Origin: Marinilabilia salmonicolor JCM 21150
GTDB lineage: Bacteria > Bacteroidota > Bacteroidia > Bacteroidales > Marinilabiliaceae
Reading direction: 5' to 3'
Length of the DNA stretch: 38,999 bases
Assembly (NCBI RefSeq): GCF_000259075.1
Contig: NZ_AJKI01000016.1
Coordinates: 1 to 38,999, forward strand
Shown here: positions 975 through 31,266 of the stretch, piece after piece
Position numbering within the stretch: the stretch's first letter is position 1
Layout of the letters: each line of letters starts with the position of its first letter
The notes under the pieces: generated by a model
Databases searched by the model: none
Seen by the model: only the letters and a program-made list of their open reading frames with translations
Told to the model about the DNA's origin: nothing
Made by a program: the position numbers and the translations under genes

Positions 975-1430
975 AATTATAGTTTTAAAAGTTAATCTGA
1001 TTTATTCACAAATAATAGATTCCGATGTCCAACTAACTGCGAATTACAAGAAACCGCGGGCAAATTTGAAGAAGGAAACAGCGAACTACATTTAAATCAC
1101 TATTGTCCGGAAATAACTATTATTAAAAAAGAAGATTGCTTCCAGCTTGGCTCCTCGCGGTCGCAATAACATTGTCTTAAAGATTCTTAGGAGGGTTGGC
1201 AGGGGGTGATTTTTGGCTTTGCGGAAAATCACCCCCTACCAACCCTCAATATATTGCAAATGTCCGTCATTGCAAACGTAGTGAAGCAATCTCATTTTTT
1301 TAACAGGACAACAAGACTTTCAAATCAAGTTTGTCGAGGACGCTTGTATTTTACCGGTAGTTGAGCATCGTAATAGATCGTTTATGAATTAACCAGGCCA
1401 AAAAGTCGCTTCAACAAAAAATATCACAAA
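975..1430. other. 455-bp intergenic region holding one repeat element
   Basis: I see no coding sequence on either strand. The middle (1134-1291) is a composite inverted-repeat element described separately. Positions 975-1130 should contain the promoter of the minus-strand gene starting at 974, but I found no exact TAnnTTTG Bacteroidota -7 box there. Positions 1292-1430 show nothing recognisable. Confidence 0.6.
1134..1291. repeat. Composite inverted-repeat element, copy 1
   Basis: The outer arms are GATTGCTTC (1134-1142) and GAAGCAATC (1283-1291). Inside them sit GCAATAAC (about 1163-1170) and GTCATTGC (1266-1273). The core is a 23-bp stem, 1191-1213 against 1225-1247, with one mismatch and an 11-nt loop. 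A second element with the same outer and middle arms but a different core lies at 33649-33794. This resembles non-autonomous palindromic (REP/MITE-like) intergenic elements; mobility is inferred, not seen. Confidence 0.75.
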
Positions 1431-11479: not shown

Positions 11480-12286
11480 TTATTGATAGATTCTTACATA
11501 ATCGACTCTCATAGTTGCCGGAAAGATTGAATCATCAACACCGTGAAGTCCACCCCAATTTCCGCCAACAGCAACATTCAATATCAGATAAAAGCGCTTG
11601 TCAAAAGGCCACTCAGGCGCCCCTCCTTTGGTATTATTGAAAGTAAAGACCAATTTATCATCGATAAAAAAGTCAATTTTTTCTTCATTCCACTCAATGG
11701 CATACACATAAAAAGCCTCTTCACAGTCAGGGACATAAGTGGCTTTTCCTTTCTGGGTCCCTATACCATGGTTAAAAGCTCCTGTATGCACGGTTGTATG
11801 AATAGAATCGGGGTCATACCCTACATGCTCCATAATATCAATCTCTCCACTTTCGGGCCACCCTCCATACTCCCAATCTGTAGGAAGCATCCAGATAGCA
11901 GGCCAGATTCCGCGGCCACCAGGCACTTGTGCCCTGATTTCCATCCTACCGTAGAGCCAGTCACCCTTTTCCTTAGTTGTGAGACGTGCCGAGGTATAGT
12001 TAAAGTCATCCAGTTTCTCACGAACGGCAGAAATATGTAAATATTCGCCATCTACCCAGGCATTTTTTTTATCCCGTACAGTATAATACTGCAATTCATT
12101 ATTTCCCCATCCATAAGAATTACCAACGGTATCATAATTCCATTTGGTCTCATCAGGAAGGCCTTCATAATCAAACTCATCACTCCAAACCAAATCAAAA
12201 TTGCCCTTATCTCTTGCAGAACACCCCCAATTAAAAAAGGAGGCGCCAAACAAAGCAAGGAGAAGAATAAATTTCCAGGAACTCAT
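11480..12286 (-). CDS. GH16 endo-beta-1,3-glucanase (laminarinase) lipoprotein
   Basis: The 268-residue protein starts at the ATG at 12286, giving a lipoprotein signal with Cys22 (N-W-G-C). It is essentially a single GH16 domain. The catalytic motif E-I-D-I-M-E places the nucleophile at E148, the assisting Asp at D150 and the acid/base at E153, with the extra Met typical of the laminarinase branch. W-P-A-I-W-M-L at about 128-134 and a closing M-R-V-D-Y-V-R-I-Y also fit. It should cleave internal beta-1,3 linkages of laminarin-like glucans. Residues after the Cys (S-A-R-D-K) are not strongly acidic, so periplasmic or surface exposure is open. It lies between a symporter gene and the GH5 gene. 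Confidence 0.93.
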   Translation of the reverse strand: MSSWKFILLLALFGASFFNWGCSARDKGNFDLVWSDEFDYEGLPDETKWNYDTVGNSYGWGNNELQYYTVRDKKNAWVDGEYLHISAVREKLDDFNYTSARLTTKEKGDWLYGRMEIRAQVPGGRGIWPAIWMLPTDWEYGGWPESGEIDIMEHVGYDPDSIHTTVHTGAFNHGIGTQKGKATYVPDCEEAFYVYAIEWNEEKIDFFIDDKLVFTFNNTKGGAPEWPFDKRFYLILNVAVGGNWGGLHGVDDSIFPATMRVDYVRIYQ

Positions 12287-12437
12287 AAAATTCGAATTTA
12301 AAAGATTAAATGAAGCGTGACAAAGAAAATATCCCAATCACCGCCTGTAACATATTAGTTTATTAGTACATTAAATAAGTGACCCGTTTACTGTTAAAGC
12401 AAGTCCTTCAAATCGGCAAACATTGGTCACCAGTCCC

Positions 12438-14159
12438 TTATTCACCATTATCCGGCGCCCGTCTTTTCTCCAGGTCAGCCTGCATTTGAAGACTTGTTTT
12501 CTTATCAATGGTATAGAAGTACAACAATGCAGCACACGACATATATAAAATACCGGGAATCACGGAAACCATGAGTTTTATGCCATTTATGGCAGTTTCG
12601 GTTTGAACGGCGTTGGCTTCAAAATTAAACAATACCAGAAGCCACCCTGCCAAAGCTCCACCTATTCCCCATCCTGCCTTTTGACCAAAGGTTGCAGCTG
12701 AAAACACAAGCCCGGTGGCTCGTTGACCGGTTTTCCACTCTGAGTAATCAGCGGTATCGGCCAACATCGTCCATAACAACACCACCGCCGGAGCATAAGT
12801 AAACTTGGCCAAAATATTGAAGATATAGATTAAGGTATAATCACCCGGCCCTGGAATATATAGCAGTCCAAAGAAAATACCCGATAAAATTGTACTTCCC
12901 ATAAACACATTGCGGTTTCCAAAGCGTTTTGCCAAAGGTTTGGCAATCGGCAATCCAACGATCAGGGCGATACTGCTCACTACATTAAACAACTGTACAT
13001 TTTCCTCAGTTCCTATATAGTACTTAAAGTAATAAGCGATGGAAAGATTCTGCAGGGCAAACATGATAAATGACACAATCCCCACAAGAGCCAAAATAAC
13101 CCAGGGCCTGTTTTTTACCAGGTCTTTAAAGTCAGACTTTATGGATTGCTGAGCAGAAACTTGTGGCAATACGCGCTCTTTGGTTGAGAAAAAAGTTATC
13201 AGGAAAAATACAACACTTAAAAAGCCTAGTATCATAAGTGTATATTGATAACCTTTTGCCTTATCCACAATATTGTCATTGGCACGCACGTCAATAATCG
13301 ATTCAAGCACAGAGGTGTCAATGTAATGAACATCTTCACGGGCCAGAGGATAAGGGATAACACCTGCGACGTTCATTTTCGCCTTGATAGCTGTTGAGTC
13401 AAAGGCCATAACACTGCCCCCATAATCCAACGTATCATTCCCGGATGGTGTTACCACAATATAAGCCACACCATCAGCCACCTTTTCGTCTTCATCTTCT
13501 ATAGAATAACGCAAAGTATCAATTCCTGCAAAACCGGGATTCAATTTATACAAAATACTATCAGCATTAATTACCTCTGCCACACCACCTTTTGATTGAT
13601 GCTCAACAATTTGCGTTTTAAAATCGCCTTTTCCGAAATAGATGGCCATCGACAAAGCCAAACCGGTTACAATCAACTGTCCCGAAAAGGCACTGACAAA
13701 ACGAAAGGTATTAATGCCGGCTCTTTCGGTTGAATCCGAAGTCATTACGGCCATCAGCGATGAATACGGTAAATTAATAGCCGTATAAGCCGTCATCAGG
13801 AGAAAGTATGTGACAGCTGCCCAAATGACCTTTCCGGTCTGATCTAAATCAGGCGTGGTAAATGTCAACACTGCCAATATAGCATAGGGAACAGCAGTAA
13901 ATAAGATATATGGACGGAACTTCCCCCATCTTGAGGTGGTTCTGTCCGAAATGACGCCCATCAGCGGGTCATTAACCATATCCCAAACACGGGCAATCAG
14001 CATAATCGTTCCAGCGGCAGCTGCCGAAATACCAAAAGTATCTGTATAAAAAATAAGGATCCAAAAGCCCACCATATCCCATACAAAATGGGACGCGGTA
14101 TCGCCCAGGCCATAGCCCAGTTTCTCTTTGAAAGACAATTTTGTTACTGTTTTTGACAT
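12438..14159 (-). CDS. GPH-family sugar:cation symporter with a large predicted periplasmic insertion
   Basis: The 573-residue membrane protein has the GPH (MelB-like) MFS signatures: D-P-L-M-G-V-I-S-D-R near 64, R-W-G-K-F-R-P-Y near 77, and a later A-D-T-A-D-Y-S-E-W segment. It should import mono- or oligosaccharides across the inner membrane with a cation. Residues about 177-302, between the predicted fifth and sixth membrane segments, form a polar insertion that ordinary GPH proteins (about 450-500 residues) lack. By MelB topology this loop is periplasmic. Part of it (207-238) resembles the end of a cadherin-like domain (G-F-A-G-I-D-T-L-R-Y-S-I). It sits in the glucan locus next to a second, insertion-free GPH symporter. 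Confidence 0.9.
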   Translation of the reverse strand: MSKTVTKLSFKEKLGYGLGDTASHFVWDMVGFWILIFYTDTFGISAAAAGTIMLIARVWDMVNDPLMGVISDRTTSRWGKFRPYILFTAVPYAILAVLTFTTPDLDQTGKVIWAAVTYFLLMTAYTAINLPYSSLMAVMTSDSTERAGINTFRFVSAFSGQLIVTGLALSMAIYFGKGDFKTQIVEHQSKGGVAEVINADSILYKLNPGFAGIDTLRYSIEDEDEKVADGVAYIVVTPSGNDTLDYGGSVMAFDSTAIKAKMNVAGVIPYPLAREDVHYIDTSVLESIIDVRANDNIVDKAKGYQYTLMILGFLSVVFFLITFFSTKERVLPQVSAQQSIKSDFKDLVKNRPWVILALVGIVSFIMFALQNLSIAYYFKYYIGTEENVQLFNVVSSIALIVGLPIAKPLAKRFGNRNVFMGSTILSGIFFGLLYIPGPGDYTLIYIFNILAKFTYAPAVVLLWTMLADTADYSEWKTGQRATGLVFSAATFGQKAGWGIGGALAGWLLVLFNFEANAVQTETAINGIKLMVSVIPGILYMSCAALLYFYTIDKKTSLQMQADLEKRRAPDNGE

Positions 14160-14186
14160 TTTGTATAAATTAAGATGGTCTTACTA

Positions 14187-15635
14187 CTAATTTTCTTCAT
14201 CCTGATGATGCACTTTACCACGCCGTGCAATTAGTGCTTCACGTATCTCATTGGCCTTTTTCTCAGTAATGTCGTAAGGGAAAATTACCAGAATCGCCAT
14301 TAAGGCAGTAAAAATTGGAATTGCGATATCCGCTATCCGAAGATTGACGATGGTGTCGGCTGTTTGGACATCCACATTTTCATTGAAACCCACATAATGC
14401 AATACAATCCCACTCAATAAAATGGCCAATGCATTTCCAAGTTTAACCATCCACCAATACACTGCACCAAACATAGCTTCCCGGCGCTCACCATTTTTCA
14501 ATTCATCCAGATCGCAGACATCCGCTGTCATTGACATCATCAGAGTAAACAGACCTCCAATACCGAATGACAAAAAAGGAATGGGCATAAACATAAGCCA
14601 CGGATTTTCCGGGTTGAAGCCCCACCATTTGAGTGAATATCCGATAACAGAAATTAGAGTAGCTATGATAAAGGCATTTTTCTTTCCTACCTTTTCTGAA
14701 ATTTTGGTGACAACAGGAATCACTAAAAAGGCCGTGGCAAGAGCGCTAATAGTTCCAAACCATGCAGGCCAGTTACCGGCTGCCGCTTTATCACCACTGA
14801 ACAGGTAGTAAACAATGATAAAAAACGCAAATTGGGCAATGGTCTGAAAACCATTAAAGATCAAAAAGGTGGCCCCACACAGGCGAATAAACGGTTTGTT
14901 TTTTAAGGTTTTCTTTATACCGGACAGAAAGTGCTTAAAGTTAGCGGCCATCTCACTCATGGATAACCTTTTCATCTTGTCCTTTTCGGGGACAATCATC
15001 TCCTTATTGAACAAAGCCGGCATGATGCCCAGAATCATACATAGACCACCAACCCATATCGCAAGAATACGGGCACCTTCAGGTGCCGAATCGAACAATG
15101 ACTGGTTGTAAATAATAACCCAAAACCAGGGGGCAATCATCCATGCAATTTGTCCCATAAACTGAGATACCGCCATCAAGCGTGTACGCTCATTATAGTC
15201 GGGGGTCATCTCATAGCCCAGACCAATAAGCGGGGTAGCAAAAATGGTGTAGCCAATGTAGAAGAACAGAGACACAATCAGGAAGTAAAAGAAATTATAC
15301 AGCTCCGAATTTTCCGGATTCAACTGCCACATAATCATAAATGCAACACCGGCAATGACACTTCCCAGCAAAATATAAGGTTTCCGCCGTCCCCATCTGG
15401 ATTTGGTGTTATCCGATATAAATCCCATAACAGGGTCTGTAAGGGCATCAATCAGCCGGGGTAAGGCGCCTAATAAACCGGCTAATATCGGATTCATGCC
15501 CAAAGACATGACCAAAACAACCATGAATACGCCCAATGCTGCTGGGAATAACTGATTGGCCAAATGGCCTGAACCAAAAGCTATTTTCTGAAAAAAAGGT
15601 ACCTTATCTTCTTTGGCGATCCTAATAGCATTCAT
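14187..15635 (-). CDS. GPH-family sugar:cation symporter (MFS)
   Basis: This 482-residue protein has about 12 predicted membrane segments and the GPH signature D-P-V-M-G-F-I-S-D-N with R-W-G-R-R-K-P-Y near residues 68-88. A matching C-terminal-half motif, A-D-V-C-D-L-D-E-L, is also present. It is predicted to move sugars or short beta-glucan oligosaccharides from periplasm to cytoplasm, supplying the cytoplasmic phosphorylase encoded upstream. It is only distantly related to the neighbouring symporter and lacks its insertion, so the two probably differ in substrate. The gap to the next gene is 27 bp, suggesting one transcript. Confidence 0.92.
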   Translation of the reverse strand: MNAIRIAKEDKVPFFQKIAFGSGHLANQLFPAALGVFMVVLVMSLGMNPILAGLLGALPRLIDALTDPVMGFISDNTKSRWGRRKPYILLGSVIAGVAFMIMWQLNPENSELYNFFYFLIVSLFFYIGYTIFATPLIGLGYEMTPDYNERTRLMAVSQFMGQIAWMIAPWFWVIIYNQSLFDSAPEGARILAIWVGGLCMILGIMPALFNKEMIVPEKDKMKRLSMSEMAANFKHFLSGIKKTLKNKPFIRLCGATFLIFNGFQTIAQFAFFIIVYYLFSGDKAAAGNWPAWFGTISALATAFLVIPVVTKISEKVGKKNAFIIATLISVIGYSLKWWGFNPENPWLMFMPIPFLSFGIGGLFTLMMSMTADVCDLDELKNGERREAMFGAVYWWMVKLGNALAILLSGIVLHYVGFNENVDVQTADTIVNLRIADIAIPIFTALMAILVIFPYDITEKKANEIREALIARRGKVHHQDEEN

Positions 15636-15885
15636 AATGCGGTGCTTTAAAAAATGGATTAATTGAAAAGAGATCAGAGCATTGTTTCCAGCCGGGATTA
15701 TTCATAAATTATCTATTACGATGTTCAACTACCTGCTAAATTCAGGCGTCCTCAATAAAATTGACTTGAAAATAGTTCACTATTTTCTTCATCAATTTTC
15801 TCTGCGGTTGCCTGGATTCATTGGTATTTAAGCATCTCATAACCAAGACTCATGAAACGAAGTTCGACGAAGTCAATAAACCAGG

Positions 15886-16959
15886 CTAATGGTTCTGTAT
15901 CAAAACCTTTTTGGGACTCCGGTCTATATTATACAAGCCCCAGTGTTTCTCGGCCCCTAAAGGGTTATTCGGATCTCCTTTCCAATCCTCGTCAAAGGCT
16001 TCAAAAAAGAAGGTAGTGATATTCATTTTTTTGGCCCATGTCATCAGCTCATTGTAGTACCTCAACTGCTTTTCCTCGCTGGCACGTTCTCCAAATTCAG
16101 ATCCTTCACTGGCCTAACCGGCTTCACTAATAACTATGGTGCTGTTGGGCAATGCGTCCCGTACTTTTTGAACATTTTCTATGGAGTAACTTAAGCCTTC
16201 ATCAATGTCTTTTCCTTCCCACACCGGATAGATGTGAATGGCAATAAAATCCAGTTCCCCAGCCAGCTTCTCTCCATGAGCAGCCCACCATTCATAATTC
16301 TCGGCAACAGTAACAGGTTGGTCAATAGCCATTTTCACCTTTCTGCAGTAGGCAATTACCGAATCAGTTTCCACCAAATGGTCATTCCAATCCACCAGGG
16401 CTTCATTCCCCACATTTACAGCGGCAACAATATCAGCATACTGATTCGCCAGATTGATTCCACGCTGAATTTCTGCCTGATTGTCAACATTATTCTGATC
16501 AAGCACCTCCTGAGGAATCGGGTCATTGAGCCAGGCACAGCCTTCATGGTTACTTAATTCTGCTTTGAGCCAGATGCCGAGCATCACCTTAATTGGAAGA
16601 TCATGTTCATCAATAATTCGCAATACGGAAGCCGAATTATGCTGAGAATCATACAACCTGATCAGATTAAAAAGGGAGTCCTGACTGATAATCTGCAAGT
16701 CCTCAAGTATCTCTTCATCGCTGGGCAATACCGCACCATCACCCCTGTCGGGATGCTGTCCGCTGCGGAAACCAGAATAACAAACGGCACGGTGCGTACC
16801 GGCCAGCAAATCCTCCTCATTTTGTTGAATAGATGCTGATTTTTTTTCGTTATCAGCAGACTTATTTTGCTGCTTTTTGCCTGACTGACAGCCGGAAACG
16901 CCGGCGACAAGGGTCAGAGCTATTATTGTTGACAAGATTATGGACCTGGACATACTCAT
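15886..16959 (-). pseudogene. GH17-like beta-1,3-glucanase lipoprotein interrupted by an amber codon
   Basis: The reading frame encodes a lipoprotein (V-S-G-C, Cys24) with a GH17-type catalytic domain. The putative acid/base is E186 in N-V-G-N-E and the nucleophile E279 in I-S-E-A-G. Translation stops at a TAG (16116-16114), codon 282. The same frame continues for 75 further conserved-looking residues (including A-S-E-E-K-Q, F-F-F-E-A-F-D-E-D-W and W-G-L-Y) to a TAG at 15888-15886, for 357 codons. GH17 enzymes have Trp right after E-x-G, so TAG most simply derives from TGG by one base. The short form of 281 residues would lose the last barrel strand and helix. It could be a young pseudogene, a readthrough site or a sequencing error. 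The basic residues after Cys24 suggest periplasmic placement. Confidence 0.85.
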
Positions 16960-16965
16960 TTCATT

Positions 16966-19900
16966 TTATTTTGTTTTTAACTCAATGGATTTAACCACTC
17001 CAATGCGCTTAAATATTTTACCTGAAGTATCAGCATCAATAACATTGTCAGAGAAGGTTATCTTTTCACCATCAGACATTGTCACAACTACCTCACTTTT
17101 ATCAGATTTAGAATAAACCACCGGTACCTTACAAATAGTATATGCCAGTTGTCCGGGTTTGAGATTCAACACCTGTTTGTTATCCTCAACATCATAATAG
17201 GTAAACGCTGCCTCCTGCCTGAGTAATTCTTCAGGATTCATTAACGAAGTATTCAACACAATCTCCCCATTATTAACCTCTACACCAAGTTCTCCCATAC
17301 GTGTGATAACATCTTCCTTTACCTGACCGGTCATTCCCGGTTGCTTCACCCCGGCACCACCCGGAGTATGGGAATATGCATCCGTGGGAAAAGCCCCATA
17401 TAAATCGGGTGATTTATACAATCCGATACCAGCCTTAACTTCGTAATAATGATCTTTTAAACGTCCGATAACTGTCGGATCAACATTGTTTTTCTCTGCC
17501 ACAAAATAGTTCTCCTGAACAGCAAGCAAAAGCTTGGACACCATGTGCCAGTATATGCTTCCGAGTCCCTCATAACCATAGAAAGTACCTGACCGACCGG
17601 TAAATGACTGATGATCAAACATTGATTCGTAAATGGCCAATATCCTTTCTTTGTCTTCATCAACCAGTTTACCATATTTCTCATCCGGTAATGCATCCAG
17701 TGCTTTAACCAATTCATCAGCATTGCGCATAACCCCGTTGAAATGATAGTTGCCAAGATTGTCACGTGATAGAATTGTGGTGTTGTTATCTGCCACCAAT
17801 TTTGCAAGCAAGGCTGAATCTTCCACTTTCTCTGCAGGTATATTGTTCTTCTCTGCAAACAGCGGCAATTGACGATCAGGATATAAAATGTAACTGTACT
17901 GATCTTCACGGAACAAGGCACTGTCTTTTAAAGCATCCATTACGCTGAGGCTCTCATTGGCATCCAGATACCCGGAACTCAATACAGCCACCTGACCTTC
18001 AAGCATTTCATAAAGATATCGAATGGATATTCCCTCAGAATCAAAAGCAATAAGGTTATAGGCATGATACAAGCCATCTTCGCGCTTGTTGGCACGGATG
18101 GATTGATCCATATATTCCAATGCCACATCCAGAAACTGCTTCAGTTCATCCGTTTCAATACGAACACGTTCTCCTTTAAAAGATTCCTGATAAATAGTGT
18201 TACGATATGCTTCTCCGGCTTTACCCAATGTATCGGCAAAGCGTTTTCTATCAGCTTTACTGAATCCCTTTTCAAGCAGTCCGGTATTGTTGGCAAATAA
18301 GTTATGAACCACATCCAGCAACTGCTTCACCTCAATTGAAAGGGTTATTTCATGGCCTGACAAGTTTTCCAGATGATCGGCCCAGAACTTGATGAAGCGA
18401 CGCATGTAATACAGTGTAACCATGGAGACACCGTTGCCCACCAATGCATTATTAGCATCGTTCCACTCCGGGCGTTGTGTATTGAGCCAGATTCCTGCCT
18501 CGGGAATGAAGTTGCTTAACTTGGCCAGTAGCGTCACCAAAATCTTTTCAGTAAGATTAACCCTGTAAAGCTCTCCGTTGGAGTCGGCCAACATCCGGGC
18601 ATCAGCACCTGATTCAGCAACTTTTTCGTTAATGCAGGCATTTAATGCAGCATCAAATTCAATGGTATCCTGGGGATTGGAAACAATATCCTTGTAAGAC
18701 TTGATACGGTACGGCACATTGGCATAAACAAAAATATCTTTCGAAAGAAGTGTTTCCAACTGTCCGGGATGGTATTTGTCTGATAACTCAAGTAGTTTCT
18801 GCAGGTAAATAATCTGATGGTCACCCCAATAACCAATATACGCCCATGGATCATTAGGATCGGGACACTCCCAGTCTATCCCTTCACGGGTAATTCGGTA
18901 GGGATTATAGCCGTCAGGTGTTGAAGCATTCAGGAATTTTGCCATCATGCCTTCCACAAATTCAGGAAATGAAAGTCCCAGCGCTTCCCAATTTTGGAAA
19001 ATATCACGCCAGTTACCCTCGTAACTCAACTTGGGACTGCCGTCTTCATTTTTCGTTTCAATGGAGAATTTATTCCAGGGACGACTTGGATCACCATGAC
19101 GACGGCTAAATGTTAATGGCAAATACTCATAGCAGATGCGAATTAAATCGGCATTCCCTTCTGCTTCAGCTTTATCAATCAGTTCTTTATTTGACAGTTG
19201 GGCGGGCAGTTCAGCCAACCAGGTTGAAAAGGCAGCTTCAACCTTTTTATTAACCTTATTAACAAACAATTTGAAATCAGCAGCATCAATCTGGTAGCCA
19301 TCATTAAAAATACCTCCCCGCATGACATTAAACAGGGTATTAGAGAAATGACGCGCGCAACTTAAATCGTCACTGCCAAGCTGTAAACCATCAGCATCTG
19401 CTACTATTTCAATCAAGTTTCTGGTGCCATTTTCTATATCAGCGGAAATAACACCCTCAATATCCATTTCAGTTTGAATAAAATGGTTAAGTTCAGCTAC
19501 GGCACCACCATCCTGGTTAATTTCAGCAACAAGACCCCAGTATTTCGATTCATTGGCTTTTAACTCAAAAGCATTGTTAATAAGATAGGCACCGCGAGCA
19601 GCTCTTACATCTTCTTCGGTAACTAAACTTTGTCCCGACTTGAAACTGTTAATCTGATTGTCAGACAAAAGAATGATGTTGTTATCAAGGCCCCACGACC
19701 ATACAGTAGTAGCTTTGAGCGATTCACTGGGCTCGGCACGGTCAACCGGGATAGAGCTTAACGAAAAAACAGCCAATCCACTTTTTGCCAAAAGTTCGTT
19801 TTTCTTGTAGGCATTAAGCAAATTGCTGAATTCATTTTGAAAAGCATAATCTACACCATACGGCAAAATATTGCGGATACCATCTAAAACCTCTACCTTG

Positions 19901-20421
19901 ATATTATCATCTCCATTATTCTTTATCGAGGATTTTCTAATGAAACCAAACTTTTCGCTGTTGGCCCATGAATATTGAAAACTTACTCCAAGATCCGGAT
20001 TCTCTTCCTCAAAAATGATTTTATTACCGTAAATACTTTTATATACGTTACGTGCGATTTTGTAAACCTGAGAAGTCTCCTTTGCAAAAGGCTCCCATAA
20101 CCAGGTTTTATTATCTTTTTCAACCAATAAACTGGTAAAACTTCCTGTCATTCGCTGATAATCGTGGATCTTATCATCGGTATAATATGGAAAGAGAGCA
20201 TTATCACGATCTTTTCTTCCTGCAGATAATGAGCCATTACTGGACAAAAACATCCAATGATCAGAGTCACTAACGATGCTCATAAAAAAGTCATCCATCA
20301 CATCGTAATGACTTATTTTGTAATATTTCTCATTGTCAAAAACGACAAATTCGCCATCCACACGATTCATGTTGTCGTTCAAATTCGTATCTCCTAAATA
20401 GATCTCTCTTCTTGTCATCAT
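16966..20421 (-). CDS. GH149-like beta-1,3-oligoglucan phosphorylase
   Basis: The 1151-residue product has no signal peptide, so it is cytoplasmic. Its size and motifs fit the GH149 family better than GH94 (about 800 residues) or GH161. Conserved-looking blocks are R-R-H-G-D-P-S-R-P-W-N (440-450), Y-E-G-N-W-R-D-I (467-474), D-G-Y-N-P-Y-R-I (503-510) and W-A-Y-I-G-Y-W-G-D-H-Q (526-536). D534 is the likely general acid by analogy with GH94. GH149 enzymes reversibly phosphorolyse beta-1,3-oligoglucans to glucose 1-phosphate. Placement among GH16, GH17 and GH3 genes and two symporters supports that role. The start is 7 bp after the mutarotase-like gene and the stop 6 bp before the GH17 start, so these genes are tightly coupled. 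Confidence 0.8.
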   Translation of the reverse strand: MMTRREIYLGDTNLNDNMNRVDGEFVVFDNEKYYKISHYDVMDDFFMSIVSDSDHWMFLSSNGSLSAGRKDRDNALFPYYTDDKIHDYQRMTGSFTSLLVEKDNKTWLWEPFAKETSQVYKIARNVYKSIYGNKIIFEEENPDLGVSFQYSWANSEKFGFIRKSSIKNNGDDNIKVEVLDGIRNILPYGVDYAFQNEFSNLLNAYKKNELLAKSGLAVFSLSSIPVDRAEPSESLKATTVWSWGLDNNIILLSDNQINSFKSGQSLVTEEDVRAARGAYLINNAFELKANESKYWGLVAEINQDGGAVAELNHFIQTEMDIEGVISADIENGTRNLIEIVADADGLQLGSDDLSCARHFSNTLFNVMRGGIFNDGYQIDAADFKLFVNKVNKKVEAAFSTWLAELPAQLSNKELIDKAEAEGNADLIRICYEYLPLTFSRRHGDPSRPWNKFSIETKNEDGSPKLSYEGNWRDIFQNWEALGLSFPEFVEGMMAKFLNASTPDGYNPYRITREGIDWECPDPNDPWAYIGYWGDHQIIYLQKLLELSDKYHPGQLETLLSKDIFVYANVPYRIKSYKDIVSNPQDTIEFDAALNACINEKVAESGADARMLADSNGELYRVNLTEKILVTLLAKLSNFIPEAGIWLNTQRPEWNDANNALVGNGVSMVTLYYMRRFIKFWADHLENLSGHEITLSIEVKQLLDVVHNLFANNTGLLEKGFSKADRKRFADTLGKAGEAYRNTIYQESFKGERVRIETDELKQFLDVALEYMDQSIRANKREDGLYHAYNLIAFDSEGISIRYLYEMLEGQVAVLSSGYLDANESLSVMDALKDSALFREDQYSYILYPDRQLPLFAEKNNIPAEKVEDSALLAKLVADNNTTILSRDNLGNYHFNGVMRNADELVKALDALPDEKYGKLVDEDKERILAIYESMFDHQSFTGRSGTFYGYEGLGSIYWHMVSKLLLAVQENYFVAEKNNVDPTVIGRLKDHYYEVKAGIGLYKSPDLYGAFPTDAYSHTPGGAGVKQPGMTGQVKEDVITRMGELGVEVNNGEIVLNTSLMNPEELLRQEAAFTYYDVEDNKQVLNLKPGQLAYTICKVPVVYSKSDKSEVVVTMSDGEKITFSDNVIDADTSGKIFKRIGVVKSIELKTK

Positions 20422-21463: not shown

Positions 21464-23704
21464 TTACCGGACTACAAAACCGGTTGTGAGATGGGCATTA
21501 GAATCGCCTCCCACCCAAAGTTGGAATTCGCCCGGCTCAACCACCTGCTTCATATCAATATTCGTAAATGCCAGCTCTTGAACGGGAATAGTTAATGTTA
21601 CTGTTTTCGATTCGCCTTTTTGAAGATCAATTCTTTCAAATGCTTTTAGCTCCTTCACAGGCCGGGTAACGTTACCAACGAGATCGCGTACATAAACCTG
21701 TGCTACTTCCTCTCCTGCGAATTCTCCGGTATTACTCAGGGTAAAACGAACTTCAATGGTTTCATCGCGGGCATAAACCTCCTTATCCAAACTCAAATCA
21801 CTGTATTCGAAGGATGTATAAGACAATCCGTAACCAAAAGGATACAAGGGTATGAAGCCCGCATCAATGTAATGCGACTCATTGCCCAATGACGTCTGAG
21901 GAGCTTTTACAGGAATATCATACATCTGAGTCCAGGAATCGGGATTAGCCGGGCGTCCTGTATTTTTGTGATTGTAATAGATGGGGATCTGACCTACAAC
22001 TTTTGGAAAGGTAACAGGCAATTTACCGGAAGGATTTGCCTTTCCTGAGACGATATCAGCCAGGGCGGCTCCTCCCATAGTTCCCGGATGCCAGGCATAA
22101 ACAACCGCATCGGCATGTTCACTGATTTCACCAATGGTCAACGGACGTCCGGCCATAACCACCAAAACAAGAGGTTTGCCGGTTTTCTTCAATTCTTTAA
22201 TCAGTTCATTTTGTACACCAGGCAAATCAATATTCGCACGTGAGTGTGCCTCACCTGATAAAATGGATTCCTCACCTCCGCAAAAAACGATCACATCTGA
22301 ATTTTTGGCCTGCTCAATCGCTTTTCTAAAGCCTTTTTGGTGACGTGTCCGGCTAATGGGCATTCCTTCGGCAAATAAAACATTCTCCTGACCAAAAGTC
22401 TTATTAAAAGCCTGAAGTGGTGTTACTGTTAAAGTAGTATCCCCGTCAAAAATCCAGGTACCTAATTGTTCATAGGGCTGATCGGCCATCGGTCCGATAA
22501 GAGCAATTTTTGAAGAAGAATTGATTGGTAATGTTTTCTGTTCATTTTTAAGCAATACCATACTCTGTGTGGCAGCTAAGTTTGCAGCTTCAAGATATTC
22601 GGGCCTGGCAAACTGGTTTTGTTTTTCTTCAGCGATATAGGGGTTATCGAATAAACCAAGTTCAAATTTCACACGCAGTATATTGCGAACAGCCTGATTA
22701 ATATCTTCAATATTTAAAGCTCCTTCTTTCAGCAACGCAGCTATATTATCTCTATAGGTGGTGGTGGCCATTTCCATATCGACACCGACCTTAATGGCAC
22801 GGTGGGCAGCTTCTTTCTCATCAGCTGCAAAACCATGATTGATCATTTCCCAGGTGGATGCCCAGTCACTCACCACGAAACCATCGAATTGCCACTCGTT
22901 GCGCAATACATCTGTAAGAAGATATTTATTGGCTGTTGCCGGCACACCGTCAACTTCATTAAAACCGGACATAAAAGTACGAACACCGGCATCAACTGCA
23001 GCTTTGAAAGGAGGTAGATAAATATCGCGCAGTTCACGGGGAGGAATAGAAGTAGTATTGTAATCACGCCCACCTTCGGCGGCACCATAACCCGCAAAAT
23101 GCTTTGCGCAGGCCGCTATGCTTGTTTCACCGTTAAGACTGTCACCCTGAAAACCCGTGACCATGGCAGCACCTAAAACGGAAGTCAGGTAAGGATCTTC
23201 ACCAAGACTTTCAGCAATACGGCCCCAGCGGGCATCTCTGCTGATGTCAATCATTGGAGCAAAAGTCCATCTTACACCTGTGGAAGCAGCCTCCGATGCA
23301 GCAATACGTGAGCCTTTCTGAACCAACTCCGGGTTCCAGGTTGCTGCTTGTCCCAATGGAATAGGAAAAACTGTTTTAAAGCCATGAATAACATCACGGG
23401 CAACAATAATCGGAATACCTAAACGACTTTCTTCAACTGCAATTTTCTGCAGTCGGTTAATATTTTCCGGATCCACCTCATTCAGGATTGATCCAATCAT
23501 GCCCTGTCGAATGCTCTCTTCGTTACCCTGACCACCACTCACCTGGCACATCTGTCCGATTTTTTCATCAAGAGTCATTTCTCCCAACAGCTGTTCAACC
23601 CTCTCTTCAACACCTGAAATCTTATCACTGCTATCACTCATCTGGCATGCCAGGCTGACAAGCATCATGATGATTATTACTGGTAAATGTTTTAAGCTTT
23701 TCAT
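21464..23704 (-). CDS. GH3 beta-glucosidase lipoprotein
   Basis: The 746-residue protein has a lipoprotein signal (L-A-C, Cys20). GH3 motifs are clear: K-H-F at 201-203 in the N-terminal barrel and the nucleophile D280 in V-V-S-D-W-A. An alpha/beta sandwich domain (about 390-600) and a C-terminal fibronectin III-like domain (about 655-746) complete the usual beta-glucosidase architecture and length. It should release glucose from the non-reducing end of beta-linked oligosaccharides, most likely laminari-oligosaccharides here, in the periplasm or at the surface. It stands fifth in the operon after the PKD-GH16 gene. All key residues seem intact. Confidence 0.95.
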   Translation of the reverse strand: MKSLKHLPVIIIMMLVSLACQMSDSSDKISGVEERVEQLLGEMTLDEKIGQMCQVSGGQGNEESIRQGMIGSILNEVDPENINRLQKIAVEESRLGIPIIVARDVIHGFKTVFPIPLGQAATWNPELVQKGSRIAASEAASTGVRWTFAPMIDISRDARWGRIAESLGEDPYLTSVLGAAMVTGFQGDSLNGETSIAACAKHFAGYGAAEGGRDYNTTSIPPRELRDIYLPPFKAAVDAGVRTFMSGFNEVDGVPATANKYLLTDVLRNEWQFDGFVVSDWASTWEMINHGFAADEKEAAHRAIKVGVDMEMATTTYRDNIAALLKEGALNIEDINQAVRNILRVKFELGLFDNPYIAEEKQNQFARPEYLEAANLAATQSMVLLKNEQKTLPINSSSKIALIGPMADQPYEQLGTWIFDGDTTLTVTPLQAFNKTFGQENVLFAEGMPISRTRHQKGFRKAIEQAKNSDVIVFCGGEESILSGEAHSRANIDLPGVQNELIKELKKTGKPLVLVVMAGRPLTIGEISEHADAVVYAWHPGTMGGAALADIVSGKANPSGKLPVTFPKVVGQIPIYYNHKNTGRPANPDSWTQMYDIPVKAPQTSLGNESHYIDAGFIPLYPFGYGLSYTSFEYSDLSLDKEVYARDETIEVRFTLSNTGEFAGEEVAQVYVRDLVGNVTRPVKELKAFERIDLQKGESKTVTLTIPVQELAFTNIDMKQVVEPGEFQLWVGGDSNAHLTTGFVVR

Positions 23705-23825: not shown

Positions 23826-24926
23826 TTAATCCAATTCATAAACCCTTACGTAATCAACTTCCATCGATTGCGGGAAAATGCTGTTATCAATACCTTGTGC
23901 CCCTCCCCAGGTTCCACCTACTGCAAGATTCAGAATAAAAAAGTGAGGTTTATTAAATGGCCAGTTAGCATCATTCTTAGAAGCAGGAGCATAGACATGC
24001 ACGATATTATCAGGTGAGTCAACATAGAAAGTAAGAGATTCTTCAGTCCATAATACCCCATAAATATGGAAATCCTCTTCTGCAGTAGGTAAAGACATGC
24101 TACTACCACTGCCATTGCCACCTGACCCTGCTGTTGTGTGCACTGTAGAATGAACAATATCAGGCTGATACCCCACATATTCCATGATATCGATTTCGCC
24201 ACATGCCGGCCATCCAACTTGTCCTAAATTGCTGCCAAGCATCCAAATTGCCGGCCAGACACCGGTTCCGGAAGGCAGTTTTGCACGAATTTCAATCCGT
24301 CCGTAAGTAAGTTCCTGCTTGTTCATTGTGACCATACGGGTTGAGGTATAAGAGCCTCGTTCTTTATTGTCATTCTCTTTTCTGGCTGTGATGACCAACT
24401 TACCATCAGTAATTTCAACATTATCACCATCGGTGTAGTACTGCAGTTCATCATTACCCCATCCCCAGTCACCGGTTCCGATCTCAAAAGTCCAATTTGA
24501 CTTGTTCACAGATGAACTGTTAAATTCATCGGACCAGATTAATCCTCCGGGAACAGTATAATCAGGGTCATCAGCGTCAATAATGACGGTTTTTGTCATC
24601 GTTTTTGTATCGGCGATACTATTTAGGGAGCCCCAAATAGTTAAAGTGACTTCATATTCACCTTTCAAAGGATAATAGACCGTTTGTTTCTGATCCTTGT
24701 CTGCATTTTTACCGGTGGACTGGCCATTACCGAAGTCCCATTCCACATATAAATAATCGCCGGATGACAAATTGGTAAGAATAATATTATTCGGATTTTG
24801 TGAATCAACTTCAATGGAGAAATCAGCAGTATAACCTTCCTGATTGTCTTCTTTACTGCACGATAAACATGCAGGGATAATAATTGCAATAATTAATAAT
24901 TTAACACCTAACAGTAACCTATCCAT
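23826..24926 (-). CDS. PKD-GH16 endo-beta-1,3-glucanase lipoprotein
   Basis: The 366-residue product has a lipoprotein signal with Cys20 or Cys23. The residues after Cys23 (S-K-E-D-N) resemble the acidic surface-export signal described in Bacteroidota, so surface display is likely. A PKD domain (about 33-118, with V-E-W-D-F-G-N-G) precedes the GH16 domain (about 125-366). The catalytic motif E-I-D-I-M-E gives E244, D246 and E249, the laminarinase form. It should make the first endo cuts in beta-1,3-glucan before import by SusCD. It differs from the second GH16 gene at 11480-12286 by the added PKD domain and likely location, so the two are probably not redundant. Confidence 0.94.
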   Translation of the reverse strand: MDRLLLGVKLLIIAIIIPACLSCSKEDNQEGYTADFSIEVDSQNPNNIILTNLSSGDYLYVEWDFGNGQSTGKNADKDQKQTVYYPLKGEYEVTLTIWGSLNSIADTKTMTKTVIIDADDPDYTVPGGLIWSDEFNSSSVNKSNWTFEIGTGDWGWGNDELQYYTDGDNVEITDGKLVITARKENDNKERGSYTSTRMVTMNKQELTYGRIEIRAKLPSGTGVWPAIWMLGSNLGQVGWPACGEIDIMEYVGYQPDIVHSTVHTTAGSGGNGSGSSMSLPTAEEDFHIYGVLWTEESLTFYVDSPDNIVHVYAPASKNDANWPFNKPHFFILNLAVGGTWGGAQGIDNSIFPQSMEVDYVRVYELD

Positions 24927-26517: not shown

Positions 26518-26564
26518 ATCTGTTTTTCTTTTATGATCCATAAATTAGATACAATAATCAGGGA

Positions 26565-28097
26565 TTAATAACCTGCATTTTGCTCCAGTTTAAACTCACC
26601 TGAAGTACGATCGATTTCTGACTGAGGAATAGGCAGATATTTCTTATAATCTTCCCATGTTCTGACAGAAGAGTACTCGTCGATATTTTCAGTCAGCTGA
26701 TTGGCATCTCCCCAGCGTACCAGATCCCAGAAGCGCATTCCTTCACCGATAAATTCACGGCGACGTTCCAGTTTGATATTTTCTTCGTTAGCAGGAACAG
26801 ATACAAAATTGTCATTCATGGCACGCTTGCGCACTTCGTCCAGGCACCACTGAGCAGTAAGCCCTTCAACAGGGGCCACACCATGCATACCCATCAATTC
26901 GGCAGCATTCAGCAGCGTTTCGGCATAACGGAAAATCCGGAGGTTATTCTCATAGTTCAAATCCACGGTGTAAGGGGCATCGTTATACTCTTCACGAGCT
27001 GCATACTTTGCCATAAACAAACCGGTATTCTGAAAACGAGCGGTATAAGTACCATCCTCGAATTGATTTACAGATGCAGCAAGACGCTCATCTCCCTCTT
27101 CAAAAATGGAAGGTATTTCCGGACGAATCGGTCCAAATCCCCAGCCACCAACAAAGGTAGTATCGCCACTCAATAAGTCATCCCCTTTCAACTCGTTAGG
27201 AGCGATAAAAGCAGGAAGGTTGGTCCCGTAGCCCTGCCATGCAGCACCCCAGTCTTTTCCTTCGGGAAGGTGATTTACTTCAAAGATTGACTCACCACAG
27301 AATTCTCCGTCACGAGGCCAGATAGAAGCGTAATCGGGCATCAGCTCATAAGCACCACTGTTAATAATTTCTGCCATATCGGCCAAAACCTCAGGGTAAC
27401 GAGTTTCATCCTGCTGATACATTACCACACGTGCTTTGAGCATCATTACTGCAGCCCGTGTTGCTCTACCATCCTCAGAAGCGCTTACACTCATTGGCAA
27501 CTTGTTCCCCTCAATGGCATAATCAAGATCTTCAATTAATTCGTTGTAAATCTGATCAGCAGTATATTGCGGAGCCATATAAGGTTCTGCGAGGTCTTCC
27601 TCAAAGTAAGGAATGTTACCCCAGAATTTCCAAAGCCAATGAACAAAATAAGCTCTCAGGTAACGTCCCTCGGCACTCAAACGAGCTACATCAGCTTCGC
27701 TCACGTCAACAGCATTCTCAGCAGCAATAATGGCATTATTGGCACGGCTGAGGCCACTGTAATATATATTCCAAAGTCCACCTGGAAGTTCACGAGGTGA
27801 AGGATCCAATTGGGAAAGTCGATAAAGTTGTGCCTGGTCACCGGCATCACCTCCACCTTTAAAAATATCATCAGAACGTAAATCTGACATCAGCACAATG
27901 CTATTGTAATTATAATCTGCATAGCTGTCAAAAAGAAGAATCTGATAAGCCGAAGCAAGGTTTGCTTCAATGGCTCCTTTTGTTGCCTCTCCCCCGGCTT
28001 CTTGAGAAGCAGTAGGATAAGCAGTCAAAAAGTCTTCACCGCAGGAAGATAAACCCACTAATGCGGCAAGAGCAACTGTTTTAATATATTTTATCAT
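26565..28097 (-). CDS. susD: SusD-family nutrient-binding lipoprotein
   Basis: The 510-residue protein starts at the ATG at 28097, giving a lipoprotein signal (G-L-S-S-C, Cys19); the frame remains open upstream but there it overlaps the end of susC. The helical TPR-like body, the R-A-N-N-A-I-I-A-A-E segment, the Y-L-R-A-Y-F-V-H-W-L helix and the C-terminal E-R-R-R-E-F-I-G-E-G-M-R-F-W-D-L-V-R-W motif are diagnostic of SusD. It acts as the lid of the outer-membrane SusC channel, binding glycan at the surface. It lies 19 bp after susC and is surely co-transcribed. The symbol is given as a homologue name. Confidence 0.95.
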   Translation of the reverse strand: MIKYIKTVALAALVGLSSCGEDFLTAYPTASQEAGGEATKGAIEANLASAYQILLFDSYADYNYNSIVLMSDLRSDDIFKGGGDAGDQAQLYRLSQLDPSPRELPGGLWNIYYSGLSRANNAIIAAENAVDVSEADVARLSAEGRYLRAYFVHWLWKFWGNIPYFEEDLAEPYMAPQYTADQIYNELIEDLDYAIEGNKLPMSVSASEDGRATRAAVMMLKARVVMYQQDETRYPEVLADMAEIINSGAYELMPDYASIWPRDGEFCGESIFEVNHLPEGKDWGAAWQGYGTNLPAFIAPNELKGDDLLSGDTTFVGGWGFGPIRPEIPSIFEEGDERLAASVNQFEDGTYTARFQNTGLFMAKYAAREEYNDAPYTVDLNYENNLRIFRYAETLLNAAELMGMHGVAPVEGLTAQWCLDEVRKRAMNDNFVSVPANEENIKLERRREFIGEGMRFWDLVRWGDANQLTENIDEYSSVRTWEDYKKYLPIPQSEIDRTSGEFKLEQNAGY

Positions 28098-28116
28098 AAC
28101 TGATTCAATTTTTATG

Positions 28117-31100
28117 TTAGAAAGTAATGTTCGCTCCAACTGAAATAGTACGGGCCTGAGGATAGATACCCCGGTCAACACCAATAGTGGTATAACCTCC
28201 GGAAGCAATCTCGGGATCAAATCCATCATACTCGGTCAGAGTTAACAGGTTCTCGGCAGAGACAAAAAATCTCAAACGTTCGATGGCTAAAGATTGAAGA
28301 AGCTGACTGGGCAGAGAATATCCTAATTGAATGTTCTTCAGGCGCACATAAGAACCATCTTTAATATAAAGTTCAGAAGAACGCCAGTTCCCATTTGCAT
28401 TTTCGCGGGTCATTCGGGGAAGCCAGTTGGAAGTTCCTTCACCTGTCCAACGATCCAAAATCCATGAGGGACGGTTCATTGCCGGGACATCACCACGTAC
28501 AGAATAATCAAAAATATCGTTTCCGTAAGCTCCCTGGAAGAACATACTGAGGTCAAAGTTTTTCCAGTCAGCATTAATGTTCAGACCGAAAGTCCAATCA
28601 GGCATTCCTTTACCAATTTTGGTCCGGTCGGCATCATTAATTTTACCATCGGGGCCACCATCTTCTGCACCGGCAATATCCATAAAGCGAACATCACCCG
28701 GAAGGGCATTTTGTCCATAAGTTGAATTGTAGGCAGCAGCTTCTTCTGCATTTTGAATAATACCATCAACTCTATATCCATAGAAATAAGGGAATACCTC
28801 TCCGTTTTCACCTTTCACATAAGCTCCGACACCGGTTGCTCCTGCATCCTCATAAATCTGCTCACCAGACTCATTACCCATATCGATGAGTTTATTCTGT
28901 AGATAGGAAGCATTCAGCCCTACATTGTAATTCAATTCGCCAAAATTACCTTTGTGATTCAATTCGAATTCGAGACCACTATTTTCCATATCACCAGCGT
29001 TAGCCAATGGTGCACCTTTTCCAACATAAGCAGGGATAGGTTGTTCCATCAACATACCGTTGGTAGTTTTCTTAAAGTAATCGAATCCAAATACGATGGC
29101 GCTATTGAAAAAACGAGCATCGAAACCAATGTCAATTTGCTCAGACTCTTCCCAAATCAAATCGGGATTAGCGATACGAGCAGGACTGGCACCATACTGC
29201 ATAGTAGAGTAGTCACCGGAACCAAAATAATAGTTCTGATTACCATCCATCAAGGAGGTGTAAGCAAAGTTACCAATGCTCTGGTTACCATTTTGTCCCC
29301 AGCTGGCACGAATTTTCAGATAATCAAACCAATCGGGACGTCCATCAAGAAAACCTTCATTGGTAACGTTCCATCCAAGAGAAACAGACGGGAAAATAGC
29401 CCATTTGTTTTCGGATCCGAAGCGGGAAGAACCATCACGACGAACGGTAGCCTGAATCATATACTTCTCATCAAAGTTGTAGTCTATTCGACCGAAGTAG
29501 GAAGCCAATGACTCCACAGAAAATCCACCGGTTCCACCTGCAACTCGCTCATCATCGCGATCAGCAATGGCATAATCAATAACCGCTTTATCAGGATTAT
29601 TTTCCAACAAATCGTAATCATCTCCATACAAATTACGATAAGTATATTCCTGAGCAGATTGTCCTAACAGCAAAGTAAAGTTATGCCGATCATTAATAGA
29701 CTTATTGTAAGTCAATGTATTTTCAACCTGCCAGGTAAAACCTCTGTGCATATTAGAATATACATGACTACGAGTCAACTCTTTCCCCTGAGTAGCCAGA
29801 AAATGCTCAAATTCATATCCGTCACCTCCCCAGAAAGCGAGATCAACACCATAGCTGGACTTAAATTTTAAACCTTCAACCACATCCAGTTCGGCCCAGA
29901 ATGAAGAAACAATCTTGTCTGAATTGTCCTCACTTCCTGTAGGTGCATCCAACATGGCAACAGGGTTGGCAATTTCCTGGAATCCTGAAGGAGGAACAGA
30001 ATATACACGTCCTTCGGAATCAGTCACTGCTGTGGGATGATCTGCAAGTACCTGATCCGGATCTGTTGCATAAACAGGAACTAACGGATTAAAAGTAATA
30101 GCACTTCCCAAAACTGAGCCATACTCTGAGTTGGTTTCAATGCCGGAAGAAACAATACGTGAATAACCAGCATTCACCCCAACCTTCAGGTTGTTCAGGA
30201 ATAAACGATCTGCACTAAAAACGTCATAAGTATTATTGGCACGTACACTGTAACGATCATAATTGGAACGACCATAGTTGCCTCCAACAATACCATCCTG
30301 GCTGAAATATCCGAAAGAAACAAAATAAGTACTCTTGTCATTTCCACCACTAATACTCACCTGATGGTTTTGTACTGGTGCATCATAATAGAAAGTCTCA
30401 TCCTGCCAGTCGGTACCTTCACCGGCATTGGCAATCTCATCCTGACTATAACGAGGAGCGTTTCCATCATTCAGCAACGATTCATTCATAATAACCATGT
30501 ACTCTTTGGCATTCAGGACAGATTTCTTTTTCCATGGATTTTGCCATCCGTAAGAGAAATCATAATTGATTTTAGCATCTCCGGCTTTTCCCGACTTGGT
30601 AGTAACAAGGATAACTCCGTTGGCAGCACGTGCTCCATATACAGCAGCTGAGGCAGCATCCTTCAAAACCTCCACTGATTCAATATCAGTAGGGTTCAGA
30701 TAGTTAATTCCACCACCAACAGCCATTCCGTCAACAATATAAAGTGGATCACTATTGTTAATGGTACCTACACCACGGATACGCACTTTAGAGTCAGAAC
30801 CAGGCTGACCAGAGCTTTGCGTAATCTGAACACCCGAAACTTTTCCCTTCAAAACATCCTCGATTCGTGAGGGTTTCGAAGATTCCAGGTCCTCCGAGGA
30901 CACACTACTAATCGCAGCGGTCACAACACTTTTTTTCTGCACACCGTATCCCACAACCACAACTTCATCAAGGTCAGTAAAGGCCTCTTTTAAAGCAATA
31001 TTAATAGTGGTTTGGTCGGCAATCACTTCAACAGTCTCCATACCTATAAATGAAAAAGCTATTGTTTCTCCTTCCGGAAGGGTCAACGAATAGTTTCCAT

Positions 31101-31266
31101 CCACATCGGTAATGGTACCATTGGTGGTTCCTTTTTGTACGACGCTTACACCCGGTATCGGGTCGCCGTCTGATTGGGAAGTTACCTTACCTGTAACGGT
31201 AACCTCCTGAGCAAACAACAATGTTGTCCACATCATTAAAAACAAAATTCCTAATGTTTTTCTCAT
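28117..31266 (-). CDS. susC: SusC-family TonB-dependent outer-membrane glycan importer
   Basis: The 1049-residue protein has a signal peptide (1-19), a carboxypeptidase regulatory-like beta-sandwich (about 21-95), a TonB-box-like E-V-V-V-V-G-Y-G at 101-108, a plug domain with R-I-R-G-V-G near 162-167, and a long beta barrel ending in an aromatic residue (N-I-T-F). This is the standard SusC architecture and length. It imports oligosaccharides into the periplasm using TonB energy, with SusD as lid. It is the first gene of the locus. The phased heptamers and a TACGTTTG -7 box lie upstream. The downstream gene set indicates beta-1,3-glucan oligosaccharides as cargo. Confidence 0.96.
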   Translation of the reverse strand: MRKTLGILFLMMWTTLLFAQEVTVTGKVTSQSDGDPIPGVSVVQKGTTNGTITDVDGNYSLTLPEGETIAFSFIGMETVEVIADQTTINIALKEAFTDLDEVVVVGYGVQKKSVVTAAISSVSSEDLESSKPSRIEDVLKGKVSGVQITQSSGQPGSDSKVRIRGVGTINNSDPLYIVDGMAVGGGINYLNPTDIESVEVLKDAASAAVYGARAANGVILVTTKSGKAGDAKINYDFSYGWQNPWKKKSVLNAKEYMVIMNESLLNDGNAPRYSQDEIANAGEGTDWQDETFYYDAPVQNHQVSISGGNDKSTYFVSFGYFSQDGIVGGNYGRSNYDRYSVRANNTYDVFSADRLFLNNLKVGVNAGYSRIVSSGIETNSEYGSVLGSAITFNPLVPVYATDPDQVLADHPTAVTDSEGRVYSVPPSGFQEIANPVAMLDAPTGSEDNSDKIVSSFWAELDVVEGLKFKSSYGVDLAFWGGDGYEFEHFLATQGKELTRSHVYSNMHRGFTWQVENTLTYNKSINDRHNFTLLLGQSAQEYTYRNLYGDDYDLLENNPDKAVIDYAIADRDDERVAGGTGGFSVESLASYFGRIDYNFDEKYMIQATVRRDGSSRFGSENKWAIFPSVSLGWNVTNEGFLDGRPDWFDYLKIRASWGQNGNQSIGNFAYTSLMDGNQNYYFGSGDYSTMQYGASPARIANPDLIWEESEQIDIGFDARFFNSAIVFGFDYFKKTTNGMLMEQPIPAYVGKGAPLANAGDMENSGLEFELNHKGNFGELNYNVGLNASYLQNKLIDMGNESGEQIYEDAGATGVGAYVKGENGEVFPYFYGYRVDGIIQNAEEAAAYNSTYGQNALPGDVRFMDIAGAEDGGPDGKINDADRTKIGKGMPDWTFGLNINADWKNFDLSMFFQGAYGNDIFDYSVRGDVPAMNRPSWILDRWTGEGTSNWLPRMTRENANGNWRSSELYIKDGSYVRLKNIQLGYSLPSQLLQSLAIERLRFFVSAENLLTLTEYDGFDPEIASGGYTTIGVDRGIYPQARTISVGANITF

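What the first reader, a model, noticed from the sequence alone, without database searches (positions are those of the whole stretch)
15886..16959. Amber codon exactly at the conserved Trp of a GH17 glucanase
The frame stops at TAG (16116-16114) right after I-S-E-A-G, where GH17 enzymes have Trp (E-x-G-W). The same frame then runs 75 more well-conserved codons to a second TAG at 15886-15888. A single TGG to TAG change explains it, and the downstream part shows no further decay, so the event is very recent, is suppressed, or is an assembly error. The truncated protein would keep E186 and E279 but lose the final barrel elements.
Basis: partly seen in the sequence, partly recalled or inferred. 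Interest (0 to 1): 0.75.

Follow-up and report, generated by a model that had tools for sequence, protein, structure and literature searches.

The report
Recently broken seaweed-sugar enzyme gene
One enzyme gene in a marine bacterium's laminarin-digesting gene cluster carries a single stop codon that cuts off the last fifth of the protein; it looks like an ordinary, very recent gene-breaking mutation (or, less likely, a sequencing error), and nothing found suggests that the cell reads through it.

Summary
The GH17 ORF (16959 to 16114, minus strand) ends in TAG at codon 282; the same frame runs 75 conserved codons further to a second TAG. Of 44 related loci found, 42 cover the site and all 42 have Trp. 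In a family search 11 of 71 genomes match, and only this one has a stop inside the match. The searches found one GH17 in this genome, in a laminarin-type PUL; 10 of 11 compared neighbours are uninterrupted, the eleventh is too diverged to judge. The tail is nearly as constrained as the head (dN/dS 0.097 against 0.085 versus UBA5340), so the change is young. It removes the last helix and strand of the barrel, so the product is almost surely inactive (inferred). Suppression is not supported: RF1 is present, none of 48 typed tRNAs has CUA, PylS was not found, 59 of 296 sampled ORFs end in TAG, and no second amber-split gene appeared in 439 kb. The one tRNA-like sequence with CTA in its loop lacks an acceptor stem. 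Best reading: recent nonsense mutation. Main rival: base-call error, which only reads can exclude.

The parts
16114..16959 (-). Truncated GH17 beta-1,3-glucanase ORF (281 codons plus TAG); lipoprotein-type N-terminus (LVAGVSGC, motif recalled); carries E186 and E279
   Evidence: 92% and 89% identity to intact genes of two genomes of the same genus
16114..16116 (-). In-frame TAG at codon 282, where all 42 covering homologues have Trp
15889..16113 (-). Conserved downstream 75 codons (last helix, last strand and C-terminus of the barrel), lost from the product
   Evidence: PF00332 match; dN/dS 0.097; secondary structure of the relative's model
15886..15888 (-). Terminal TAG of the frame; both close relatives also end in TAG
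16966..20421 (-). GH149 beta-1,3-glucan phosphorylase, uninterrupted, directly upstream
   Evidence: NF058639 1750 bits; near-equal length in both relatives
21464..23704 (-). GH3 beta-glucosidase, uninterrupted
23826..24926 (-). PKD-GH16 beta-glucanase, uninterrupted
11480..12337 (-). Second GH16 beta-glucanase, uninterrupted
12438..15635 (-). Two GPH/MFS-type sugar symporters (12438-14159, over the TIGR00792 cut-off; 14187-15635, below it but a Pfam MFS_2 match), uninterrupted
26565..31266 (-). SusD-like and SusC-like pair of the PUL (named by eye from the ORF sequences, no family search run; both matched to M. rubra ORFs)

Best explanation
A single nonsense substitution at codon 282 has very recently broken the only GH17 gene found in a Marinilabilia-type bacterium, inside an otherwise nearly intact laminarin PUL. 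RF1 should terminate at this TAG (inferred). The product lacks the Trp after the nucleophile, the last helix (alpha7), the last strand (beta8) and the C-terminus, so it should not fold into a closed barrel or hydrolyse glucan (inferred). The GH16, GH3 and GH149 enzymes probably keep part of the pathway running (inferred).
For: Trp at this codon in 42 of 42 covering loci, and in the 9 other family genomes whose match reaches the site (they overlap with the set). Only the own genome, of 11 with a match among 71, has a stop inside it. Tail dN/dS against UBA5340 is 0.097, head 0.085; against M. rubra 0.052 and 0.058. Only 5 window-specific amino-acid changes in the tail, where 35-51 are expected had the whole branch been neutral; neutral for at most 0.23-0.33 of it. 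In the relative's AlphaFold model (mean pLDDT 88.6) strand 276-281 carries the nucleophile, and helix 296-313 and strand 317-319 lie beyond the stop. The model's top matches are GH17 structures 6fcg, 4wtr and 4wtp. RF1 is present, none of 48 typed tRNAs is CUA, and 59 of 296 sampled ORFs end in TAG.
Against: There is no decay downstream, so an intact gene with a base-call error looks the same. GH17 and GH149 occur together or not at all in the 5 genomes of the genus (3 with both, 2 with neither), so loss of GH17 alone is unusual there. No second strain of the species was available.
Confidence: 0.77

Rival explanations
1. Base-call or assembly error: the cell has an intact GH17 gene and the consensus is wrong at one base.
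For: The tail shows no decay; draft assembly of 72 contigs; 10 of 11 compared PUL neighbours are uninterrupted.
Against: Among 4 candidates in a 439-kb sample, the other 3 were judged not to be split genes, so the assembly is not riddled with nonsense errors. Consensus substitution errors are rare in drafts of good depth (recalled).
Confidence: 0.17
2. The amber is read through or suppressed, giving some full-length GH17, perhaps at a low level.
For: The tail is still under purifying selection. A tRNA-Met-derived tRNA-like sequence at G000:C4:251-314 shows CTA in its anticodon-like loop. Misreading of UAG by near-cognate tRNAs is on record (PMC5289835, passages).
Against: None of the 48 typed tRNA matches has CUA. 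The tRNA-like sequence has no pairing 5' acceptor strand, is not called by ARAGORN, and its loop reads differently in two other genomes of the genus. Both tRNA-Trp genes have CCA with a 5-bp anticodon stem. RF1 is present, PylS was not found, TAG ends 59 of 296 sampled ORFs, and no other amber-split gene appears in the sample. Caveats: 150 of 258 first-look tRNA candidates were scored, and the draft has gaps.
Confidence: 0.05
3. The shortened protein is functional, for example as a glucan-binding protein that no longer cuts.
For: It keeps the first seven strands and both glutamates.
Against: 17 of the 43 invariant columns lie at or beyond the stop. None of the 42 covering homologues ends here.
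Confidence: 0.01

Closest known systems
GH17 endo-laminarinase FbGH17A (PDB 6fcg, Formosa Hel1_33_131; PMC6246565, passages read)
   Same: Same family and barrel fold (Foldseek rank 1, TM 0.74/0.67); Formosa laminarin PULs also hold GH16, GH3 and GH149; E-x-G-W at the nucleophile
   Different: FbGH17A has its Trp and C-terminal part; the window's copy stops at that Trp. Identity in the structural match is only 25%
MlGH17A of Muricauda lutaonensis (PMC13188888, passages read)
   Same: GH17 laminarinase in a laminarin PUL; nucleophile at the end of beta7, proton donor at the end of beta4
   Different: Intact, and accompanied by a second GH17 (MlGH17B); only one GH17 was found in the window's genome
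Ordinary nonsense pseudogenes of bacteria (recalled)
   Same: One substitution makes a stop; close relatives are intact; no recoding machinery found
   Different: Nothing beyond being so recent that no second lesion has accumulated

Membership tests
GH17 (Pfam PF00332) | Match to the family profile over its cut-off | tested here: met
   34.1 bits read with X at the stop, cut-off 28.2; the tail alone 29.5 bits; the 281-residue ORF alone gives no match at E 0.001
GH17 (Pfam PF00332) | Two catalytic glutamates at the ends of beta4 and beta7 | tested here: met
   E187 and E280 invariant in 41 of 41 aligned homologues, at the ends of strands 179-186 and 276-281; present as E186 and E279 in the window
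GH17 (Pfam PF00332) | Complete (beta/alpha)8 barrel in the product | tested here: not met
   The ORF's product ends before the last helix and strand of the relative's model
Amber suppression or recoding | A tRNA with anticodon CUA | tested here: not met
   48 of 49 tRNA matches typed, none CUA; the 49th is a remnant. Caveats: 150 of 258 first-look candidates scored; the draft has gaps and no Ala(TGC) tRNA turned up either
Amber suppression or recoding | Loss or rarity of UAG as terminator, or loss of RF1 | tested here: not met
   59 of 296 sampled ORFs of at least 120 aa end in TAG, this one included; RF1 present
Amber suppression or recoding | Several genes with conserved in-frame TAG | tested here: not met
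   1 of 345 sampled TAGs, this one; the only other TAG-ended ORF with 75 or more open codons after it runs into the next gene
Pyrrolysine coding | PylS | tested here: not met
   0 of 1 genomes, 10 candidates scored
Nonsense pseudogene | Stop inside a frame that is open in close relatives | tested here: met
Nonsense pseudogene | Stop confirmed in reads or in a second isolate | not testable with these tools
   No reads and no conspecific genome held

The most novel reading that the evidence does not exclude
The TAG is tolerated because the cell makes some full-length GH17 through context-dependent read-through without a cognate suppressor tRNA, which would make it a leaky switch on laminarin endo-cleavage.
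Probability: 0.03. Interest if true: 0.6.

Novelty: new member of a known kind. Interest (0 to 1): 0.13.

Why it matters
It matters mainly for annotation: this strain should not be credited with an active GH17 laminarinase on the strength of its PUL, and the GH17 fragment should not be taken for a short enzyme. If the stop is real, the strain is a natural single-gene loss in a laminarin PUL and could show how far GH16, GH3 and GH149 can do without GH17.

Tried and rejected
Suppressor tRNA: an Rfam tRNA search of the genome gave 49 matches (150 of 258 first-look candidates scored); ARAGORN typed 48, none CUA. A pattern scan for a CUA loop plus T-loop gave 5 matches against 9 for the reversed control pattern. 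One lies in tRNA-Arg(TCT), read out of register; the other four were not examined and are taken as chance.

The tRNA-like sequence at G000:C4:251-314 was followed because its loop contains CTA. It resembles the tRNA-Met(CAT) gene of contig C56 most, lies at the 3' end of a GIY-YIG ORF, lacks a pairing 5' acceptor strand, and its loop reads ATCTAAAT here, ATCTTTAT in G038 and ATCAAAAT in G037. Rejected as a suppressor.

Other split genes: of 4 candidates in 439 kb, two are starts of the next gene (L147, L151) and one looks like an antisense shadow (L154:4650), all three judged by eye; the fourth is this gene. A TAG-ended ORF with a 214-codon open extension (L154:12297-13415) runs into the next gene, with no coding signal in its first 20 codons.

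Locus L020 looked broken at first, but its match had been joined with another GH17 fragment upstream; its own GH17 is intact with Trp. Of the 44 loci, 41 were aligned and L020 was checked apart; L049 and L052 end before the site.

Relaxed selection on the tail is not shown. 5 tail and 4 head changes are specific to the window, 3 and 7 to UBA5340 (Fisher p 0.37). Two results lean towards some relaxation: the window's own changes are denser in the tail (5 of 75 codons against 4 of 281), and tail dN/dS against M. rubra is 0.052 for the window but 0.028 for UBA5340. Neither was tested alone.

Literature (judged from titles and starts of abstracts, except where passages are named): 'GH17 + laminarin + premature stop codon', 1 paper, soybean; 'Marinilabilia + laminarin', 7; GIY-YIG/tRNA-like, 9; PUL/laminarin/GH17/GH149, 35 papers, 12 listed, passages read of two; suppression, 108 papers, 10 listed, passages read of two; PUL + premature stop codon + glycoside hydrolase, 2. 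None listed appears to report this case.

Full report
What is there. On the minus strand an ORF starts at 16959 and stops at TAG 16116-16114 after 281 codons; the same frame stays open for 75 more codons to TAG 15888-15886. The tail alone hits Pfam GH17 over its cut-off. The window is contig C16 of a 4.98-Mb, 72-contig genome. The closest GH17 relatives are from Marinilabilia: UBA5340 (92%) and M. rubra (89%). I did not identify the window's species.

Surroundings. The gene lies in a laminarin-type PUL: SusC/SusD-like pair (named by eye), PKD protein, PKD-GH16, GH3, a 296-aa protein without a Pfam or NCBIfam match, GH149, GH17, two GPH/MFS symporters, GH16 and a GH5-CBM protein with a T9SS tail. 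Eleven neighbouring ORFs were compared with ORFs of the fetched M. rubra (40 kb) and UBA5340 (15 kb) stretches. Nine align over nearly their whole length with an ORF of near-equal length in at least one of them. SusD aligns at 23-554 of 554 with a 565-aa ORF. The PKD protein has diverged (37% over residues 9-304 of 500) and cannot be judged. The two searches made found no other GH17 in the genome.

Is the stop in relatives? Of 44 loci, 42 cover the site and all 42 have Trp (41, L020). In the family search 11 of 71 genomes have a match at E 1e-20, and only the own genome has a stop inside it. One match, in G017, is a 60-residue fragment beyond the site; the 9 other genomes have Trp there, as do the second, more distant GH17 copies of 7 of them. 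In M. rubra and UBA5340 the codon is a Trp codon and the frame ends at a terminal TAG.

How old is it? With UBA5340, dN/dS is 0.085 for codons 1-281 (0.073 for 56-281) and 0.097 for 283-357; with M. rubra it is 0.058 (0.035) and 0.052; UBA5340 with M. rubra gives 0.051 (0.028) and 0.028. Polarised with M. rubra, the tail has 5 amino-acid changes specific to the window and 3 specific to UBA5340. 35-51 would be expected had the tail been neutral on the whole branch, so it was neutral for at most 0.23-0.33 of it. This fits a young mutation, an error, or continued use of the tail; slight recent relaxation is possible but not shown.

Consequence. The AlphaFold model of the intact UBA5340 protein (41-sequence alignment, mean pLDDT 88.6) matches GH17 structures 6fcg, 4wtr and 4wtp best. 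By my count of its eight strands the nucleophile ends beta7 (276-281); the last helix (296-313) and beta8 (317-319) come after the stop. Of 43 invariant columns, 17 lie at or beyond the stop codon. That the product is inactive is inference from this.

Can the cell read it? RF1 is present. Of 49 tRNA matches 48 were typed, none CUA; 150 of 258 first-look candidates were scored. The two tRNA-Trp genes carry CCA and differ at one base. PylS was not found. TAG ends 59 of 296 ORFs of at least 120 aa in a 439-kb sample, and no other gene split by TAG was found there. The only CTA-bearing tRNA-like sequence met is a tRNA-Met-like remnant with no acceptor stem, and its loop is not conserved. Misreading of UAG by near-cognate tRNAs such as tRNA-Gln in E. 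coli is on record (PMC5289835, passages), and suppressor tRNAs occur in 0.3% of the genomes analysed in PMC13092985 (passage), so weak leakage cannot be excluded.

Why at the Trp? In the intact UBA5340 gene 39 single transitions give a stop, 20 of them at Trp codons; 22 give TAG, 10 of them at Trp codons, 7 of which are invariant. A nonsense transition at an invariant Trp is therefore an expected outcome.

Verdict. A recent nonsense mutation in a laminarin PUL is the best reading; a consensus error is the main rival; suppression is unlikely.

Noticed in passing
window 15685-15889 (minus strand): A short, strongly folding repeat (about 190-205 bp, z -5.0) with similar inverted ends (AGCCTGGTTTATT / AGCCGGGATTATT, by eye) begins flush at the terminal TAG of the GH17 gene. 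It is absent at this place in M. rubra and UBA5340; its first 90 bases match 41 further places in the own genome. MITE-like; no transposase was sought.
   Followed up: partly
window 1318-1398 and 1002-1043: Pieces of the same repeat elsewhere in the window.
   Followed up: no
L114 and L125 (G000:C4:239-349); L156 (G038), L157 (G037): The 3' end of a small GIY-YIG ORF overlaps a tRNA-Met-like sequence that lacks a pairing 5' acceptor strand, has a palindromic anticodon arm, and keeps the T-arm and a downstream terminator-like hairpin; the DNA of this stretch is conserved in two other genomes of the genus.
   Followed up: partly
L126 (G000:C56:1-184), L158 and L161 (G039), L160 and L163 (G037): Partial copies (about 40-46 bases) of the same tRNA-Met stand beside the intact gene in three genomes of the genus.
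   Followed up: no
L086-L092 and L094-L100 (family genomes): Seven genomes of the family carry a second GH17 (46-49%) within about 0.5 kb of the first, and several a third, weaker one (25-32%) further on; the own genome has neither.
   Followed up: partly
window 25039-26541: The PKD protein beside SusD is far more diverged from M. rubra (37% over part) than the enzymes around it.
   Followed up: no
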